From NCBI GenBank assembly GCA_019114755.1, contig DXEW01000017.1, forward strand, positions 1 through 63,383: 63,383 bases of DNA. The letters are read 5' to 3'. This document shows positions 1 through 63,383 of the stretch, in pieces. The first letter of the stretch is position 1. Every line of letters starts with the position of its first letter. The stretch is from Candidatus Borkfalkia faecavium. GTDB taxonomy: Bacteria; Bacillota; Clostridia; Christensenellales; Borkfalkiaceae. The translations under genes and the position numbers were made by a program. A model generated the notes under the pieces. It was not told the DNA's origin and made no database searches. It saw only the letters and a program-made list of their open reading frames with translations.

Positions 1-365
1 AGAATTGTGTGAGCTAAAATACTCGCGCAAGCAAAATCACACTTTTGCGCCAGCGCACCCAATTTGCGCGACAGCGCTCCCGCAGGAAAGGTGAAGGCTG
101 CGCGCGTTTTATAATAAGTGTGCCCTGAAAAACAAACAGGGCTCCCGAAAATCGCAGCAAAGCGAGATTTTTGGGAAAGAGGAGCGGCAGGCGCAGCGGG
201 CAAGGCGGCGAGCATAGCACGCCGTCTGCCATGGCGCCTTGACGCGACGAGCAGCCGAGGAAAACTCCGAACAGAAAACGCGCACCGTTCGGCGCGCGTT
301 TTGGTTGGGGTTTTCTTCAAAATCTCGACGATTTGTTTTGTCAGCTCAAAACAAATCGTGAGAAT
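1..365 (-). repeat. Composite structured intergenic repeat, copy R1 (cut by window edge)
   Basis: Non-coding. Read on the minus strand it carries the same conserved islands as the copies near 15.5 kb and 39.1 kb: a 12-bp perfect hairpin (arms 328-339 and 348-359, loop GTCAGCTC), an AAAACGCGC/GCGCGTTTT hairpin with a variable tip (about 275-300), the CTTCACCTTTCCTGC island and a GCGCAA...TTGCGC hairpin near 25-55. A further module (about 137-245) recurs at 16278-16395. It begins a few bases after the rseP stop, so it may also act as that operon's transcript end. Short reading frames across it are not genes. Confidence 0.75.
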
Positions 366-14641: not shown

Positions 14642-14671
14642 TTGATTGCCGCGCGCATTTTGTGTTATACT
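14642..14671 (+). promoter_or_regulatory. Promoter of the YugP-type peptidase
   Basis: -35 TTGATT (14642-14647), 18-bp spacer, extended -10 TGTTATACT (TATACT at 14666-14671). Confidence 0.75.
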
Positions 14672-14744
14672 AAACATAATAAAAGGCGCAAACTTGCGCA
14701 AACGCGCAGGCGCCCTTCACAACACCGAAAAAGAGGAAACTGCC

Positions 14745-15491
14745 ATGTGGTTTTTTTCTGACGTCTACCTCATCTACCTGTGCTCGGGGCTGATCATCCT
14801 GCCCTGCCTGCTGCTCGCCGCCTGGGCGAGCGCGCGGGTGCACTCCACCTACAACAAGTACAACAAGCTGCCCACCTCTACCGACTGGACGGGCAGCGAC
14901 ACCGCGCGCATGCTGCTGGAAAAGAACGGCATTGCCGACATCGCCGTGGTGCGCGGCAAGGGAAAGCTGACGGACAACTTCAACCCCCGCAGCAAGACGG
15001 TCACCCTTTCGGAAAGCACCTATGCCTCTAACTCGGTGGCGGCGGTGGCGGTGAGCGCGCACGAGATCGGGCACGTGGTGCAGCGGGCGCGCGGCTACGC
15101 CTTTTACAGGCTGCGCACGGCGCTGGTGCCGCTGACGAACATCGGCTCCATGCTCGCCTTCCCCGTGGTCATCGTCGGCGTCATCCTCGAATGGACGCTC
15201 GCCTCTTCGACGGCGGGCAACATCGTGGTGTTTGCGGGCATCTGCCTGTACGCGCTGTCTACCCTGTTCTGCCTGGTGACGCTGCCCGTGGAGCTGAACG
15301 CCTCTTCCCGCGCAAAAAAAATGCTCGCCGAGACGGGCGTTTTGGTCACAGAGGAAGAACAGAAGGCGGCCGCAAAAGTGCTGTCCGCGGCGGCGATGAC
15401 CTACGTCGCCTCGCTTTTGACCTCGCTGGTGTATTTTTTGCGCTTTTTGCTGTATGTGTTTTTGCTGACGGGAAGGAGAAGAAACGATTAA
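14745..15491 (+). CDS. Zinc metallopeptidase, YugP family
   Basis: 248-residue integral membrane protein from the ATG at 14745 (MWFFSDVYL), with GAGGA upstream; a longer upstream frame lacks signals. The zinc motif HEIGH is at residues 106-110, between an N-terminal membrane anchor (about 8-28) and three C-terminal hydrophobic segments (about 125-150, 155-180, 215-240). YugP-type proteins are widespread in Bacillota and their substrates are not established. Monocistronic, followed by the R2 repeat. Confidence 0.88.
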   Translation: MWFFSDVYLIYLCSGLIILPCLLLAAWASARVHSTYNKYNKLPTSTDWTGSDTARMLLEKNGIADIAVVRGKGKLTDNFNPRSKTVTLSESTYASNSVAAVAVSAHEIGHVVQRARGYAFYRLRTALVPLTNIGSMLAFPVVIVGVILEWTLASSTAGNIVVFAGICLYALSTLFCLVTLPVELNASSRAKKMLAETGVLVTEEEQKAAAKVLSAAAMTYVASLLTSLVYFLRFLLYVFLLTGRRRND

Positions 15492-15498
15492 AAAGAAG

Positions 15499-15966
15499 TT
15501 CACGCGTTCCTCGGCGAGCTGACGCCTGCGGAACGCCGTGAGTTTTAGGAAAACCCCAACCAAAACGCGCTATCTGCCGATAGCGCGTTTTCTGTTCGGA
15601 GTTTTCCTCGCCGCGGCATAGTTCAGAGCACACCATTATCAAAATGCCGCGGCTTCACCTTTCCTGCCAAAGCCTCACGGCAAATTGGGGGCGCGGGCGC
15701 AAAAACGTGGTTTTGCTTGCGCGAGTATTTATTTTCAGTTCACGAAATTTCTTTCGTGCTGACGAAAGAAATTTCCGTGAGGAAGGGGGAAACCTGCCGT
15801 GCGCTCGTCGCGTAAAATTACGCGCCGTGCTGGCGGCGGTTTCTCCCCTCTTTTTTTGCCGTTTGGGGGCTCACGTTTTATAAACGGCAAAAAAATTCAC
15901 CTCCATCCGTATGCCCATAAGGGAAAAAAGGAAAAAGTGTGATTTTTCCTTTTTTTCGTATTTGTT
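15499..15966 (+). repeat. Composite structured intergenic repeat, copy R2
   Basis: Most complete copy. In order: P1-type hairpin (15501-15540, inner GAGCTGAC); hairpin AAAACGCGCTAT/ATAGCGCGTTTT enclosed by GGAAAAC/GTTTTCC (about 15551-15608); 10-bp stem GCCGCGGCAT/ATGCCGCGGC with loop core TTCAGAGCACACC; CTTCACCTTTCCTGC island; GCGCAA/TTGCGC hairpin; second P1 (15741-15779); GGGGGAAACC/GGTTTCTCCCC stem enclosing an inner palindrome; TTTTTTTGCCGTTT/AAACGGCAAAAAAA stem (15851-15895); a GGAAAAA/TTTTTCC hairpin. Islands match R1, R3 and R4 while stem arms differ. Non-coding. Confidence 0.8.
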
Positions 15967-15999
15967 TGGAGCGATGGAGAGTTTGTCTCAGCCCCGCGC

Positions 16000-16260
16000 G
16001 GCGAAGCGCGCGGGTATGGATTGTTTTTCTATGTCACCCTGAGCGGCGAATGGATATGAGCCGCGCAGTCGATCCGTCTCTTCGTCCTGTCATTTCGACC
16101 GAGGAAAGGAGCAACAGCGACTGACCGAGTGGAGAAATCTTGCGCGGTGCGTATCGAAAGACAAACTCTTTTGCCGTGTTCGGAACAGCTCTCTGTTCAA
16201 GACAAGATCCCTCGACTGACGCTCGGGATGACAAGGATGGTTTTATTTTCATAGATCCTT
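16000..16260. repeat. Short interspersed repeat of the CATCCTGAGCG type
   Basis: Strings such as TGTCACCCTGAGCGGCGAAT, TCATTTCGACCGAGGAAAGG and ATCCCTCGACTGACGCTCGG are characteristic of widely scattered bacterial interspersed repeats. A related short copy lies at 34388-34420. No gene. Confidence 0.55.
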
Positions 16261-33354: not shown

Positions 33355-33421
33355 TGATAAAGTTCACTCCTTATTATAAATATTGAGAATACCTTGACGG
33401 AACAAAGTATTGCATTTGCCT

Positions 33422-33700
33422 AACCAAGTCAAAATAAACCGAACCCGATCGAAAGCGGGGATATTACCACATCTGCTGCGTTAAAGCCCTTGCCAATACG
33501 TCGGTGTATTGGCTGCGGGCTTTGCCTTGCATCTGCGGCAATCTACCCGCTTGCGATTGCTTCGCACCCTGAAAGAGCGCATTTTGCGATGAATTGGGGC
33601 GGCGAAGCAGCAATACCCACAGAGGTATTGCAATGAGGATGAGCCGCAAGACGCGCAAAAGACGCCTTTCAGGGCGGGTTCGGATTACTTTGACTTGGTT
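33422..33700 (+). mobile_element. MITE-like element, full copy (279 bp)
   Basis: 26-bp terminal inverted repeats (AACCAAGTCAAAATAAACCG left, AACCAAGTCAAAGTAATCCG as the right end's complement; 24 of 26 positions agree). Inside are hairpins AAAGCCC.TGCCAATAC/GTATTGGC.GGGCTTT and GCAATACC/GGTATTGC. It has no transposase gene. The left flank is TA. It lies between rpsJ and rplC, five bases from the rpsJ stop. A near-identical copy starts at 63204. Confidence 0.85.
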
Positions 33701-34384: not shown

Positions 34385-34445
34385 CTGTCATCCTGAGGAG
34401 CGAAGCGACGAAGGATCTCTTTTTGAATGGTAAATGTAAAATGTA
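34385..34445. repeat. Interspersed repeat fragments
   Basis: TCATCCTGAGGAGCGAAGCG is the core of a widespread interspersed repeat. It is followed by a small AATGTAAAATGTAGAATGTA tandem motif (about 34423-34458). Confidence 0.5.
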
Positions 34446-34474
34446 GAATGTAAAATTTCGGACGATTTAAAACA

Positions 34475-34700
34475 AATACGAAAAAAAGGAAAAACGACGC
34501 TTTTTCCTTTTTTCCCTTATAAGTATACGGATGGAGGTGAATTTTTTTGCCGTTTATCAATCGTGAGCCCCTAAACGGCAAAAAAAGAGGGGAGAAACCG
34601 CCGCCAGTACGGCGCGCAACTTTGCGCGCCAACGCACGGCAGGTTTCCCCCTTCCTCACGGAAAATTCTTTTGTCAGCTCAAAAGAATTTTCGTGAACTC
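34475..34700 (-). repeat. Composite structured intergenic repeat, copy R3
   Basis: Reverse complement of the second half of R2. P1 hairpin AAAATTCTTTT-GTCAGCTC-AAAAGAATTTT (34662-34691), GGTTTCTCCCC stem region with inner GCGCGC palindrome, P3 stem TTTTTTTGCCGTTT/AAACGGCAAAAAAA (34542-34586) and a GGAAAAA/TTTTTCC hairpin. It begins directly after the hsp20 stop, so it may end that transcript. Confidence 0.8.
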
Positions 34701-38239: not shown

Positions 38240-38764
38240 TTATGCGCCCTTCTTTTCGGCGATGGCGTTGAGCGCCACCACTACGCCGCGCAGCATTGCG
38301 GAAAGAACGCCCGCAAAGTTGGCGATGGGTGCCTGCATCGAGCCGAGCATCTTGGCGATGAGCTCTTCCCTCGAAGGCATATCCGCGAGGGCTTTGACGC
38401 CCGCCGCATCGACATACGCGTTGTCGACATAAGCGCTCTTGGGGACGATCTTTTCGGGCAGGTCTTTGACCGCCTGGGCGAAGATCTTGGCCGCCGACGT
38501 TTCGTCGGGGCTGAACGCCGTAGCCGTGGGGCCGTTGAGGTCGGCATCGAACGCATCTACGCCCAGTTCGTTGAAGGCCTTGCGCACGAGGGTGTTTTTG
38601 TACACCTTGTACTCGACGCCCGCCTCGCGGAACTTGTTGCGGAGCGCGGAAACTTCTGCAACGGTGAGCCCCTTATAGTCGACAAATACGACAGACTTGC
38701 TGTTTTGGATCTTTTGCTTGATCTCTTCAACAACCTGCTTTTTTGCTTCTAAATTGGCTGACAT
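38240..38764 (-). CDS. rplJ: 50S ribosomal protein L10
   Basis: 174 residues; N-terminal rRNA-binding part (SKSVVFVDYKGLTVAEVSAL, YKVYKNTLVRKA) and the C-terminal helix that binds L7/L12 dimers. AGGAGG precedes the ATG. The promoter and L10 leader lie 600-770 bp upstream, because repeat R4 sits between leader and gene. Confidence 0.98.
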   Translation of the reverse strand: MSANLEAKKQVVEEIKQKIQNSKSVVFVDYKGLTVAEVSALRNKFREAGVEYKVYKNTLVRKAFNELGVDAFDADLNGPTATAFSPDETSAAKIFAQAVKDLPEKIVPKSAYVDNAYVDAAGVKALADMPSREELIAKMLGSMQAPIANFAGVLSAMLRGVVVALNAIAEKKGA

Positions 38765-38784
38765 TGGTTACCTCCTGTTATATT

Positions 38785-39300
38785 TGGCTCGCGAAAATCT
38801 CGGCGGCTGCGCCTGCGATTTTCTGCGATTTGAGGGAGACACCTCCGTGCGCTCGTCGCGTAAAATACGCGCCGTGCTGGCGGCGGTTTCTCCGCTCTGC
38901 GCCGCGCACGCAAGGGCTCTCGTTTGATAAACGCGCGGCGCATTCACCCTCTTCCGTATACCTTTAAGGGGCGCCGGCGCAAAAGCGTGGTTTTGCTTGC
39001 GCAGTCGTTATTTTATTGACTCGCGAAAAATGTTTTGAGCTGACAAAACATTTTTCTGCGATCTGAGGACAACCCCACTGTCCGCCTTCGGCGGAGCAGC
39101 CGGAGTTTTCCTCGGCGGTGCGCTTTTCAGGGCACACCTTTTTCAGACGCGCACCGCCTTCACCTTTCCTGCAAAAGCCTGACGGCAAATGAGGGGCGCG
39201 GGCGCAAAAGCGTGGTTTTGCTTGCGCAGTCGTTATTTAAGTTTTTCCTCGCGAAAATCTCGGCGGCTGCGCCTGCGATTTTCTGCGATTTGAGGCCGCG
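38785..39300 (-). repeat. Composite structured intergenic repeat, copy R4, inside the rplJ leader
   Basis: Displays its modules on the plus strand but is transcribed as complement in the rplJ leader. Contains P1-type hairpins at 38790-38827, 39025-39056 and 39250-39287; P3 stem TGCGCCGCGC/GCGCGGCGCA (38898-38942) around the conserved GGGCTCTCG loop; TCCGCC-TTCG-GGCGGA hairpin; 10-bp stem GGCGGTGCGC/GCGCACCGCC with loop TTCAGGGCACACC; CTTCACCTTTCCTGC island; and two GCGCAAAAGCGTGGTTTTGC hairpins. All are homologous by position to R2 with different stem arms. Confidence 0.8.
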
Positions 39301-39361
39301 GCACGCCCTGCCGGGCGGCGCTTCCTCTGCGGCGCCTTTGAACACTTCAAACGCCTGCCGC

Positions 39362-39398
39362 AAAAAAACAGCCCTTACACCGCACGGCATAAGGGCTG
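39362..39398 (-). terminator. Attenuator of the L10 leader
   Basis: Stem CAGCCCTTA/TAAGGGCTG with a 12-base tip followed by seven T on the minus strand, about 110 nt downstream of the predicted start. Confidence 0.88.
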
Positions 39399-39500
39399 CA
39401 AGAAAACACTTTTCACAGCTACAAAACGCCTCGGCGGGCTGCATGCGCAATTAAACCAAACGGTGCCTGCTTTCTACGGTGTGCTATTCATTTGTTGTAA
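39399..39500 (-). promoter_or_regulatory. Ribosomal protein L10 leader
   Basis: Transcribed leader of rplJL. It contains GCCGAGGCGTTT (about 39423-39434), a core of the L10 leader in Bacillota, upstream of the attenuator. In relatives excess L10-L7/L12 complex binds here and favours termination. Assignment is by position and motif; no covariance search was done. Confidence 0.75.
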
Positions 39501-52701: not shown

Positions 52702-52778
52702 GCGCCCTTAGCTCAATTGGATAGAGCGTTGGTCTACGGAACCAAAGGTTAGGGATTCGAGCTCCTTAGGGCGCGCCA
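52702..52778 (+). tRNA. tRNA-Arg (anticodon ACG)
   Basis: 77 nt with encoded CCA. Acceptor GCGCCCT/AGGGCGC, anticodon stem TTGGT/ACCAA around loop CTACGGA (anticodon ACG), T-arm AGGGA-TTCGAGC-TCCTT. A14-G/D-arm (TAGCTCAATTGGATAGAGC) is standard. Confidence 0.97.
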
Positions 52779-52779
52779 C

Positions 52780-52818
52780 AAAAAAGCCACGGACTGTTGT
52801 CCGCGGCTTTTTTGTTAT
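52780..52818 (+). terminator. Terminator after tRNA-Arg
   Basis: AAAAAGCC.CGGAC/GTCCG.GGCTTTTTT stem, immediately after the CCA. A second copy of the hairpin and T-run lies at 52933-52958. Confidence 0.92.
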
Positions 52819-53057
52819 GTGCTCATAGCAGCTCGAATTGGTTGCCCAGCAGGGGCAAGCTATTCGGGCACGCAGTGCCTTGCGCCCGCAGGGCGCAAAA
52901 CTCCTTAGGGCGCGTGCTCGCCTTCCTATATACCACGGACTGTTGTCCGCGGCTTTTTTGTTATGCACCCATAGCAGCTCGAATTGGTTGCCGCTTGCGG
53001 CAAGCTATTCGGGCACACAGTGCCTTGCGCCCGCAGGGCGCAAAACTCCTTTGGCAC
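52787..53057 (+). repeat. About 146-bp tandem duplication downstream of tRNA-Arg
   Basis: CCACGGACTGTTGTCCGCGG begins both units (52787, 52933), followed by ATAGCAGCTCGAATTGGTTG, GGGCACGCAGTGCCTTGCGC and the TTGCGCCC/GGGCGCAA hairpin. The first unit ends with CTCCTTAGGGCGCG (52901-52914), identical to 52762-52775 at the tRNA 3' end; the second ends with a degenerate version. No gene. Confidence 0.85.
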
Positions 53058-53118
53058 CGTGGCGTGTGCCAAACGGTTAAAATATCGGAATTTATTATCG
53101 TTTTGCCTATAATTTTTC

Positions 53119-63163: not shown

Positions 63164-63203
63164 AAAACAAAAACGGGCAAACAAAGAGGCCTTCTCCGAT
63201 CAT

Positions 63204-63383
63204 AACCAAGTCAAAGTAATCCGAACCCGATCGAAAGCGGGGATATTACCACATCTGCGGCGTTAAAGCCCTTGCCAATACGTCGCTGTATTGCCTGCGG
63301 GCTTTGCCTTGCATCTGTAGTGATCTACCCGCTTTCGATTGCTTCGCACCCTGAAAGAGCGCATTTTGCGATGGATTGGGGCG
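63204..63383 (+). mobile_element. MITE-like element, second full-type copy (cut by window end)
   Basis: The first 180 bases match 33422 onward with only scattered differences (terminus AACCAAGTCAAAGTAATCCG, TA on the left flank). It includes the AAAGCCC/GGGCTTT hairpin. The right end lies outside the window. Confidence 0.9.

What the first reader, a model, noticed from the sequence alone, without database searches (positions are those of the whole stretch)
15499..15966. A dispersed non-coding repeat whose stems change in a compensated way: candidate structured RNA or DNA element
Copies near 1-365, 15.5 kb, 34.5 kb and 39 kb share islands and loops but not stem arms. One 10-bp stem is GCCGCGGCAT/ATGCCGCGGC in R2 and GGCGGTGCGC/GCGCACCGCC in R4, with the loop core TTCAG(A/G)GCACACC conserved; R1 has GGCTGC/GCAGCC there. 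The P3 stem is TTTGCCGTTT/AAACGGCAAA in R2 and R3 but TGCGCCGCGC/GCGCGGCGCA in R4 around GGGCTC(A/T)CG. Such substitutions preserve pairing and argue for selection on structure rather than decay. I know of no named family with this set of islands, but have not searched.
Basis: seen in the sequence. Interest (0 to 1): 0.85.

Follow-up and report, generated by a model that had tools for sequence, protein, structure and literature searches.

The report
Mobile hairpin repeat beside genes
Bacteria of one genus carry many copies of a small non-coding repeat built as a row of hairpins; its paired arms change together while the loops stay fixed, and copies often sit right beside genes, so it looks like a new kind of self-spreading DNA repeat rather than an ordinary regulatory RNA.

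Summary
The 468-bp stretch is two tandem units (15499-15735, 15739-15967) of one family. Each unit is about 220-235 bp, some five hairpins in a row (P1-P5). A model of hairpin P3 matches 69 places in this genome and 36 of 40 genomes searched in the genus, own included. In 183 held copies P3 has 77 distinct arm pairs; 1787 of 1830 pairs are Watson-Crick.

Two results move the interpretation. (1) G-T pairs (8) are no commoner than C-A (12); tRNAs of the same genome show 50 against 0. The constraint thus looks equal on both strands: DNA hairpins, or RNAs from both strands. (2) Units tend to abut genes with P1 facing the gene: 98 of 172 by a stop codon, against 34 of 172 for the other end. Sites are filled in some species and empty in others; alike copies have unrelated flanks.

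Best reading: a nearly genus-restricted, non-autonomous, REPIN-like mobile repeat whose fold, not its arm sequence, is conserved. Terminal inverted repeats, target duplications, REP tags, three transposase or reverse-transcriptase families and Rfam matches were sought and not found. The mover is unknown.

The parts
15499..15735 (+). Unit A (copy R2a): P1, P2, P3, island TTCACCTTTCCTGC, P4, P5, tail GTATTTATTT; starts 7 nt after the stop codon of the + ORF 14646-15491 (a zinc metallopeptidase, PF04298)
   Evidence: 15499-15736 folds as ssDNA with z -5.9
15739..15967 (+). Unit B (copy R2b), tandem to unit A, same hairpin order, island TTCACCTCCATCCGTATGC and a terminator-like P5
   Evidence: 15737-15972 folds as RNA with z -9.4
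15606..15667 (+). P3 hairpin and island of unit A (model R1 match, 68.8 bits)
   Evidence: this hairpin is also one of the 23 rows of the model
15847..15909 (+). P3 hairpin and island of unit B (model R1 match, 67.0 bits)
   Evidence: this hairpin is also one of the 23 rows of the model
15..364 (-). Copy R1 with the ~130-bp insert in P3; P1 starts 5 nt after the stop of the - ORF 370-1497 (peptidase M50, PF02163)
34470..34697 (-). Copy R3, B type; P1 faces the 3' end of a minus-strand HSP20 gene (PF00011)
38788..39015 (+). Copy R4a; P1 lies 11 nt from the antisense Shine-Dalgarno (38770-38776) of the minus-strand L10 gene (38764-38240, PF00466)
39020..39238 (+). Copy R4b, tandem to R4a, between rplJ and the L10 leader
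39248..39288 (+). Lone P1 hairpin with the same sequence as the P1 of R4a
   Evidence: by eye
39356..39497 (-). L10 leader (RF00557) upstream of rplJ, separated from it by R4a and R4b

Best explanation
It is a nearly genus-restricted family of non-autonomous mobile intergenic repeats that works like a REPIN. Each unit (about 220-235 bp, TTCAC... to ...GTATTTRTTT) is a row of about five hairpins. Loops and linkers are conserved in sequence, while stems are conserved only as stems. Shown: high copy number, similar copies at unrelated sites, presence or absence between species, compensated arms, no sign of a one-strand (wobble) bias, and P1 tending to face the neighbouring gene. Inferred: the unit spreads as a folded single DNA strand whose loops and linkers are read by an unknown enzyme of the cell, so the arms need only pair. 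New copies are kept mostly between a gene's end and its terminator, where they do least harm. Arm changes probably arise partly by hairpin template switching during replication.
For: Compensated arms: 77 distinct P3 arm pairs in 183 copies, 94.7% WC as they stand against 45.9% (max 54.7%) after shuffling. That call picks the best offset per copy and keeps only copies with >=7 WC; with the offset re-optimised for shuffled arms too and all 198 hits kept, it is 9.42 of 10 against 6.55 (max 6.76). With fixed anchors and no filter on pairing, 98.5% against 62.8%. P1: 237 of 240 WC. Strand symmetry: P3 8 GT, 12 CA of 1830; P1 0 and 0 of 240; 33 own-genome tRNAs 50 and 0 of 684. Mobility: R2's gene has no unit next to its stop in 24 of 24 readable orthologues; R1's gene has one in 7 of 29 readable loci, own included (by eye, by model). 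In G011 the unit lies between the stop and a terminator nearly identical to G013's, which has no unit. R3 and the copy at G000:C27:7407 are 94% identical with unrelated flanks and sharp edges at GTTCAC and GTATTTGTTTT. Polarity: P1 side within 40 nt of a same-strand stop in 98 of 172 and facing an antisense start in 12; P5 side 34 and 1.
Against: No enzyme was found: Y1 transposase, RVT_1 and Transposase_20/IS110 give 0 matches in the own genome, and by eye none follows copy number in the genus. No target duplication or terminal inverted repeat. No strain-level empty site. On the P1 side 42 of 172 copies fit no gene-edge class and 20 are tandem. Terminator-like hairpins of the same loci also show GT about equal to CA (91 and 78 in a noisy set of 210), so the symmetry is not unique to the family. 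ARAGORN may itself disfavour C-A in tRNA stems, so the 50-to-0 control may be partly built in. P1 keeps an unpaired C and P2 keeps mismatches (by eye), which fits selection on a precise fold, RNA or DNA. Only 3 of 8 compared pairs have their 5' edge at (G)TTCAC.
Confidence: 0.6

Rival explanations
1. A host-selected structured RNA: a 3'-UTR module that stabilises mRNA, ends transcription or slows ribosomes near the stop codon.
For: P1 starts 0-9 nt after a same-strand stop in 21 of 52 own copies, against 0 of 52 for the same distance at the other end. P5 of B units looks like a terminator and unit B folds with z -9.4. E. coli REPs under 16 nt from a stop are reported to lower translation (passages of PMC12306157 on an earlier study).
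Against: Wobble pairs are not enriched over C-A, unlike tRNAs (with the ARAGORN caveat). Units at rplJ lie antisense in 4 of 4 genomes that have them by model. The gene before R2 lacks a unit in 24 of 24 readable orthologues.
Confidence: 0.2
2. Arms are kept alike by mutation, not selection: DNA hairpins template their own repair by template switching, so a change in one arm is copied into the other.
For: Explains near-perfect arms, few intermediates and strand symmetry. Template switching is reported to create and maintain hairpins (abstract and start of introduction of PMC8794818). Of 20 distinct own-genome P3 arm pairs, 197 of 200 cells are WC and 3 are mismatches.
Against: It does not explain the conserved loops and linkers, nor the unpaired C of P1 and the mismatches of P2, which arm copying would tend to remove (by eye).
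Confidence: 0.3
3. A classical MITE or REPIN moved by a known transposase of the host.
For: Size, copy number, hairpins and intergenic position fit. REPIN hairpins also show compensatory changes (passage of PMC3116915).
Against: No TIR or TSD, no GTAG or CGTC tag, no Y1 transposase found in the own genome.
Confidence: 0.07
4. Ordinary intrinsic terminators that share sequence by gene conversion.
For: Position after stop codons and the T-rich tail.
Against: In G011 the unit lies in front of a separate terminator. Five hairpins with fixed loops are not a terminator, and rplJ copies lie upstream of a gene.
Confidence: 0.05

Closest known systems
REPIN / REP repeats with RAYT (Y1) transposases
   Same: Short non-autonomous intergenic hairpin repeats, high copy, some right after stop codons; arms with compensatory changes (passages of PMC3116915, PMC3733652, PMC12306157)
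   Different: Here about five hairpins in 220-235 bp, no GTAG or CGTC tag, no Y1 transposase found in the own genome; PMC3733652 says G-T pairing was often observed in GTAG repeats, here it is rare
BOX, RUP and SPRITE repeats of Streptococcus pneumoniae
   Same: Structured repeats, BOX modular; judged parasitic, some co-transcribed, some at gene 3' ends (passages of PMC3049150)
   Different: BOX is proposed to be mobilised through TIRs like those of an IS; no TIR seen here. Sequences were not compared
bcr1-bcr18 repeats of the Bacillus cereus group
   Same: Group-restricted interspersed repeats, some MITE-like, some with conserved structure, often in UTRs (passages of PMC3446304)
   Different: Sequences were not compared here
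Template-switch-maintained hairpins
   Same: Multibase compensated stems made in one event (abstract of PMC8794818)
   Different: A mutation process, not a repeat family; does not account for conserved loops

Membership tests
REP / REPIN | GTAG or CGTC tag at the end of the palindrome | tested here: not met
   0 of 37 own copies hold either tag or its complement in the 16-nt window at the 5' end; none in those 3'-end windows that the script located
REP / REPIN | RAYT (Y1) transposase in the genome | tested here: not met
   PF01797: 0 matches in the own genome (89.9% complete, so a missed gene is possible); 18 of 31 genus genomes searched have one
REP / REPIN | Hairpin arms with compensatory changes | tested here: met
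MITE | Terminal inverted repeats | tested here: not met
   Mean end-to-end score 6.07 of 14 against 5.52 shuffled, 28 copies with both ends located
MITE | Target-site duplication | tested here: not met
   2 of 28 copies have any flank match, against about 2.7 of 28 in shuffles; the 3' edge is only known to a few bases
BOX (pneumococcus) | boxA-boxB-boxC modules | not tested
   BOX sequences were not compared
Rfam families | Match at the family's gathering score | tested here: not met
   Only tRNA and L10_leader in the whole window
Group II intron or retroelement | Reverse transcriptase in the genome to move it | tested here: not met
   PF00078: 0 in the own genome, 4 of 40 in the genus
IS110 with bridge RNA | Transposase_20 gene in the genome | tested here: not met
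   PF02371: 0 in the own genome, 6 of 40 in the genus
Folded RNA acting from one strand | G-U pairs in excess of C-A mismatches in variable stems | tested here: not met
   P3 8 GT, 12 CA of 1830; P1 0 and 0 of 240; tRNA control 50 and 0 of 684; P2, P4, P5 not counted this way
Intrinsic terminator | Serves as the terminator of the gene before it | tested here: inconclusive
   In G011 a separate terminator follows the unit; P5 of B units has a T-run

The most novel reading that the evidence does not exclude
A mobile element recognised by shape: conserved loops on single-stranded DNA are the address, while the stems are free text that is continually rewritten in matched pairs by hairpin template switching. 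It lands at gene edges with one end facing the gene, using functions of the cell rather than a transposase of its own.
Probability: 0.15. Interest if true: 0.78.

Novelty: new variant of a known kind. Interest (0 to 1): 0.55.

Why it matters
One genome offers about 20 versions of the same hairpin, and the loci held here 77. That is a natural experiment on how paired arms evolve, and it can separate RNA selection from DNA-level arm copying by counting G-T against C-A. The family also sits at many gene ends in this genus, and it seems to break assemblies: contigs C4, C5, C9 (the window) and C24 of this genome begin or end in a copy.

Tried and rejected
Rfam at gathering score over the whole window and at E<=5 over 15400-16000: nothing credible. 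Plasmid and phage records, distant mode: no match. Y1 transposase, reverse transcriptase and IS110 as movers: not found in the own genome; that genome is 89.9% complete, so a missed gene is possible. Replication-strand polarity: GC skew of the window is too weak to use. Terminator-like hairpins as a second control: noisy. A first look at orthologue flanks took the wrong ORF and was redone with tblastn, then checked with the model (one extra weak hit, 21.4 bits, in the G021 locus, not beside the gene's stop). Group I introns, integron attC sites and known ribozymes were considered from recall only and not tested beyond Rfam. P4 and P5 pairing was not counted; P2 pairing was only looked at. For P1, only 88 copies whose loop reads NGCTGA were used, and 12 of their 36 distinct arm pairs, which use a shifted register, were left out of the count. 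For P3, 15 of 198 hits with under 7 WC pairs (mostly the insert form, some false or decayed) were left out; one search keeps them. Literature: seven searches, of which I read the listings, and seven papers opened for passages or for the outline with abstract; none that I saw describes this family, but sequence cannot be searched there and I do not know the genus name.

Full report
What is there. The window is one whole contig of a 1.73-Mb, 38-contig genome. blastn with 15500-15975 finds 119 matches at E<=10 in that genome; a stricter rerun over the fetched stretches merges to 45 clusters. They fall into two frequent subfamilies, A and B, and a third, C, marked by GAGAGACAACCC...GGTTTTCTCTC. 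The finding's 468 bp is one A and one B unit in tandem. Complete units share one order: P1 (TTCAC...loop GAGCTGA...GTGA), P2, P3 (loop GGGCACACC...TTTATAAAA), a TTCAC island, P4, P5 (loop GYGYG) and a tail GTATTTRTTT. Six own-genome copies have a longer P3 form with a ~130-bp insert (by eye; the filter flagged seven, one wrongly). The same longer form is visible in G046.

Stems change, loops do not. With P3 arms taken from fixed anchors, 37 own copies give 20 distinct arm pairs, 98.5% paired as they stand against 62.8% (max 81.5%) after shuffling partners. Over all loci then held, 183 of 198 loop hits have at least 7 WC pairs, with 77 distinct arm pairs and 1787 of 1830 WC cells. That search picks the best offset for each copy. 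Giving shuffled arms the same freedom and keeping all 198, copies average 9.42 WC of 10 against 6.55 (max 6.76). P1 next to its loop gives 24 usable distinct pairs and 237 of 240 WC cells. The tool's count on alignment A1 (37 copies, P1 and P3) gives 97.8% paired, 18 of 22 pairs changed on both sides, and a covariation score of 0.711 against 0.210 shuffled. In the same call the bare number of pairs changed on both sides (18 against 16.7) and of further pair types (25 against 30.2) does not exceed shuffles. Copies are related, so none of these is a probability.

DNA or RNA. In an RNA used from one strand, G-U is the easy halfway step. On the other strand a G-T pair reads as C-A. P3 shows 8 G-T, 12 C-A and 23 other mismatches in 1830 cells; P1 shows no G-T or C-A and 3 others in 240. 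The 33 tRNAs read from the same genome show 50 G-T and 0 C-A in 684 cells. So the pairing looks constrained alike on both strands: a DNA hairpin, or RNA from both strands. The tRNA yardstick is rough: tRNAs evolve slowly, and ARAGORN itself may disfavour C-A. Terminator-like hairpins of the same loci give 91 G-T and 78 C-A, so symmetry alone is not unique to the family.

Where it sits. Of 172 held copies with 450 nt of flank on both sides, the P1 side lies within 40 nt of a same-strand stop in 98 (33 of 53 own, 65 of 119 relatives), faces an antisense start with a Shine-Dalgarno in 12, follows another copy in 20 and fits none of these in 42. The P5 side lies within 40 nt of a converging stop in 34 (11 of 53, 23 of 119), faces a start in 1, precedes another copy in 21 and fits none in 116. 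ORFs were called mechanically and the P5 end was set at a fixed offset, so both sides hold some error. In the own genome 21 of 52 begin 0-9 nt after a stop, against 0 of 52 at the other end.

Mobility. The gene before unit A is a zinc metallopeptidase. Of 26 loci fetched for it, only the own one has a unit beside the stop; 24 others with readable 3' flanks do not, and one has no flank (by eye, 85 by model). The gene before R1 is an M50 peptidase. It matches in 37 of 40 genomes; of 30 loci fetched, 7 have a unit (own, G046, G042, G048, G012, G016, G011; that of G046 scores only 18.7 bits), 22 do not, and one has too little flank. In G011 the unit, followed by a P1 fragment, lies between the stop and a terminator, GCGGCGGCTTGC...GCAAGCCGCCGC, that G013 carries without a unit. 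At rplJ (L10), 20 of the 36 matching genomes were fetched. The L10 leader is found in 17 of 20, the other three being cut short upstream. Two antisense units stand there in 4 of 20, and a partial one is visible in G012. Their arms differ between species although they sit at the same place, so either repeated landing or exchange of hairpins has occurred. R3 and the copy at G000:C27:7407 are 94% identical over 221 nt, with unrelated flanks and sharp edges at GTTCAC and GTATTTGTTTT. Two G046 copies are 97% identical over 227 nt with unrelated 5' flanks, but both run on into another repeat downstream. Of 8 pairs compared, 3 have the 5' edge at (G)TTCAC; the others are a few bases off, differ in P1 or share more flank. 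The same P1 stem occurs with different P2 types and with up to six P3 stems, so hairpins are also reassorted.

Spread. The P3 model matches 36 of 40 genomes of the genus, own included, with up to 122 places in one. In a draw of 61 genomes of the family, with stricter filters, it matches 9, in 4 of 18 genera, one of them at E 0.006 only.

How it most likely works. Shown: a dispersed non-coding unit, filled or empty by species, whose fold is kept and whose one end tends to face genes. Inferred: it moves as a folded DNA strand read at its loops by an enzyme not yet found, and it persists where it harms least. Template switching (PMC8794818, abstract) may rewrite the arms, but alone it does not explain the constant loops, the unpaired C of P1 or the P2 mismatches. 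The cellular effect is unknown. E. coli REPs within 15 nt of a stop are reported to lower translation (PMC12306157, passages), so a side effect on the gene before it is plausible.

Compared with the known. It works like a REPIN, but fails the REPIN tag and RAYT tests and the MITE tests, and it has no Rfam match. I therefore call it a new variant of a known kind.

Noticed in passing
L063 (G000:C1:16602-16942) and L010/L075 (G000:C20:26531-26862): A different repeat with long terminal inverted repeats (AACCAAGCCAAAGC...GCTTTGGCTTGGTT) seems to have inserted into B units; it looks like a true MITE.
   Followed up: no
33421-33601 and 63203-63383: A 181-bp direct repeat, 94% identical, beginning near AACCAAGTCAAA; the second copy ends the contig.
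   Followed up: no
38764-39497: The L10 leader and rplJ are separated by 591 nt holding two units, while in G049 they are 85 nt apart; the ribosomal protein operon tolerates the insertion.
   Followed up: partly
L014, L025, L026 upstream flanks: Remnants of P1 that stop at or near its loop lie just before complete units, as if hairpins had been cut at the loop.
   Followed up: no
downstream flanks of many copies, for example window 34430-34470: Runs of ACATTTTACATTCTACATTT-like repeats and an AGAGATCCTTCG...GGATGACA repeat often follow the units; gene ends in this genome look like stacks of repeats.
   Followed up: no
L258 (G012): P1 carries a long extra hairpin-like insert in its loop region.
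   Followed up: no
52787-53061: Two tandem copies of about 145 bp downstream of the tRNA at 52702-52775.
   Followed up: no
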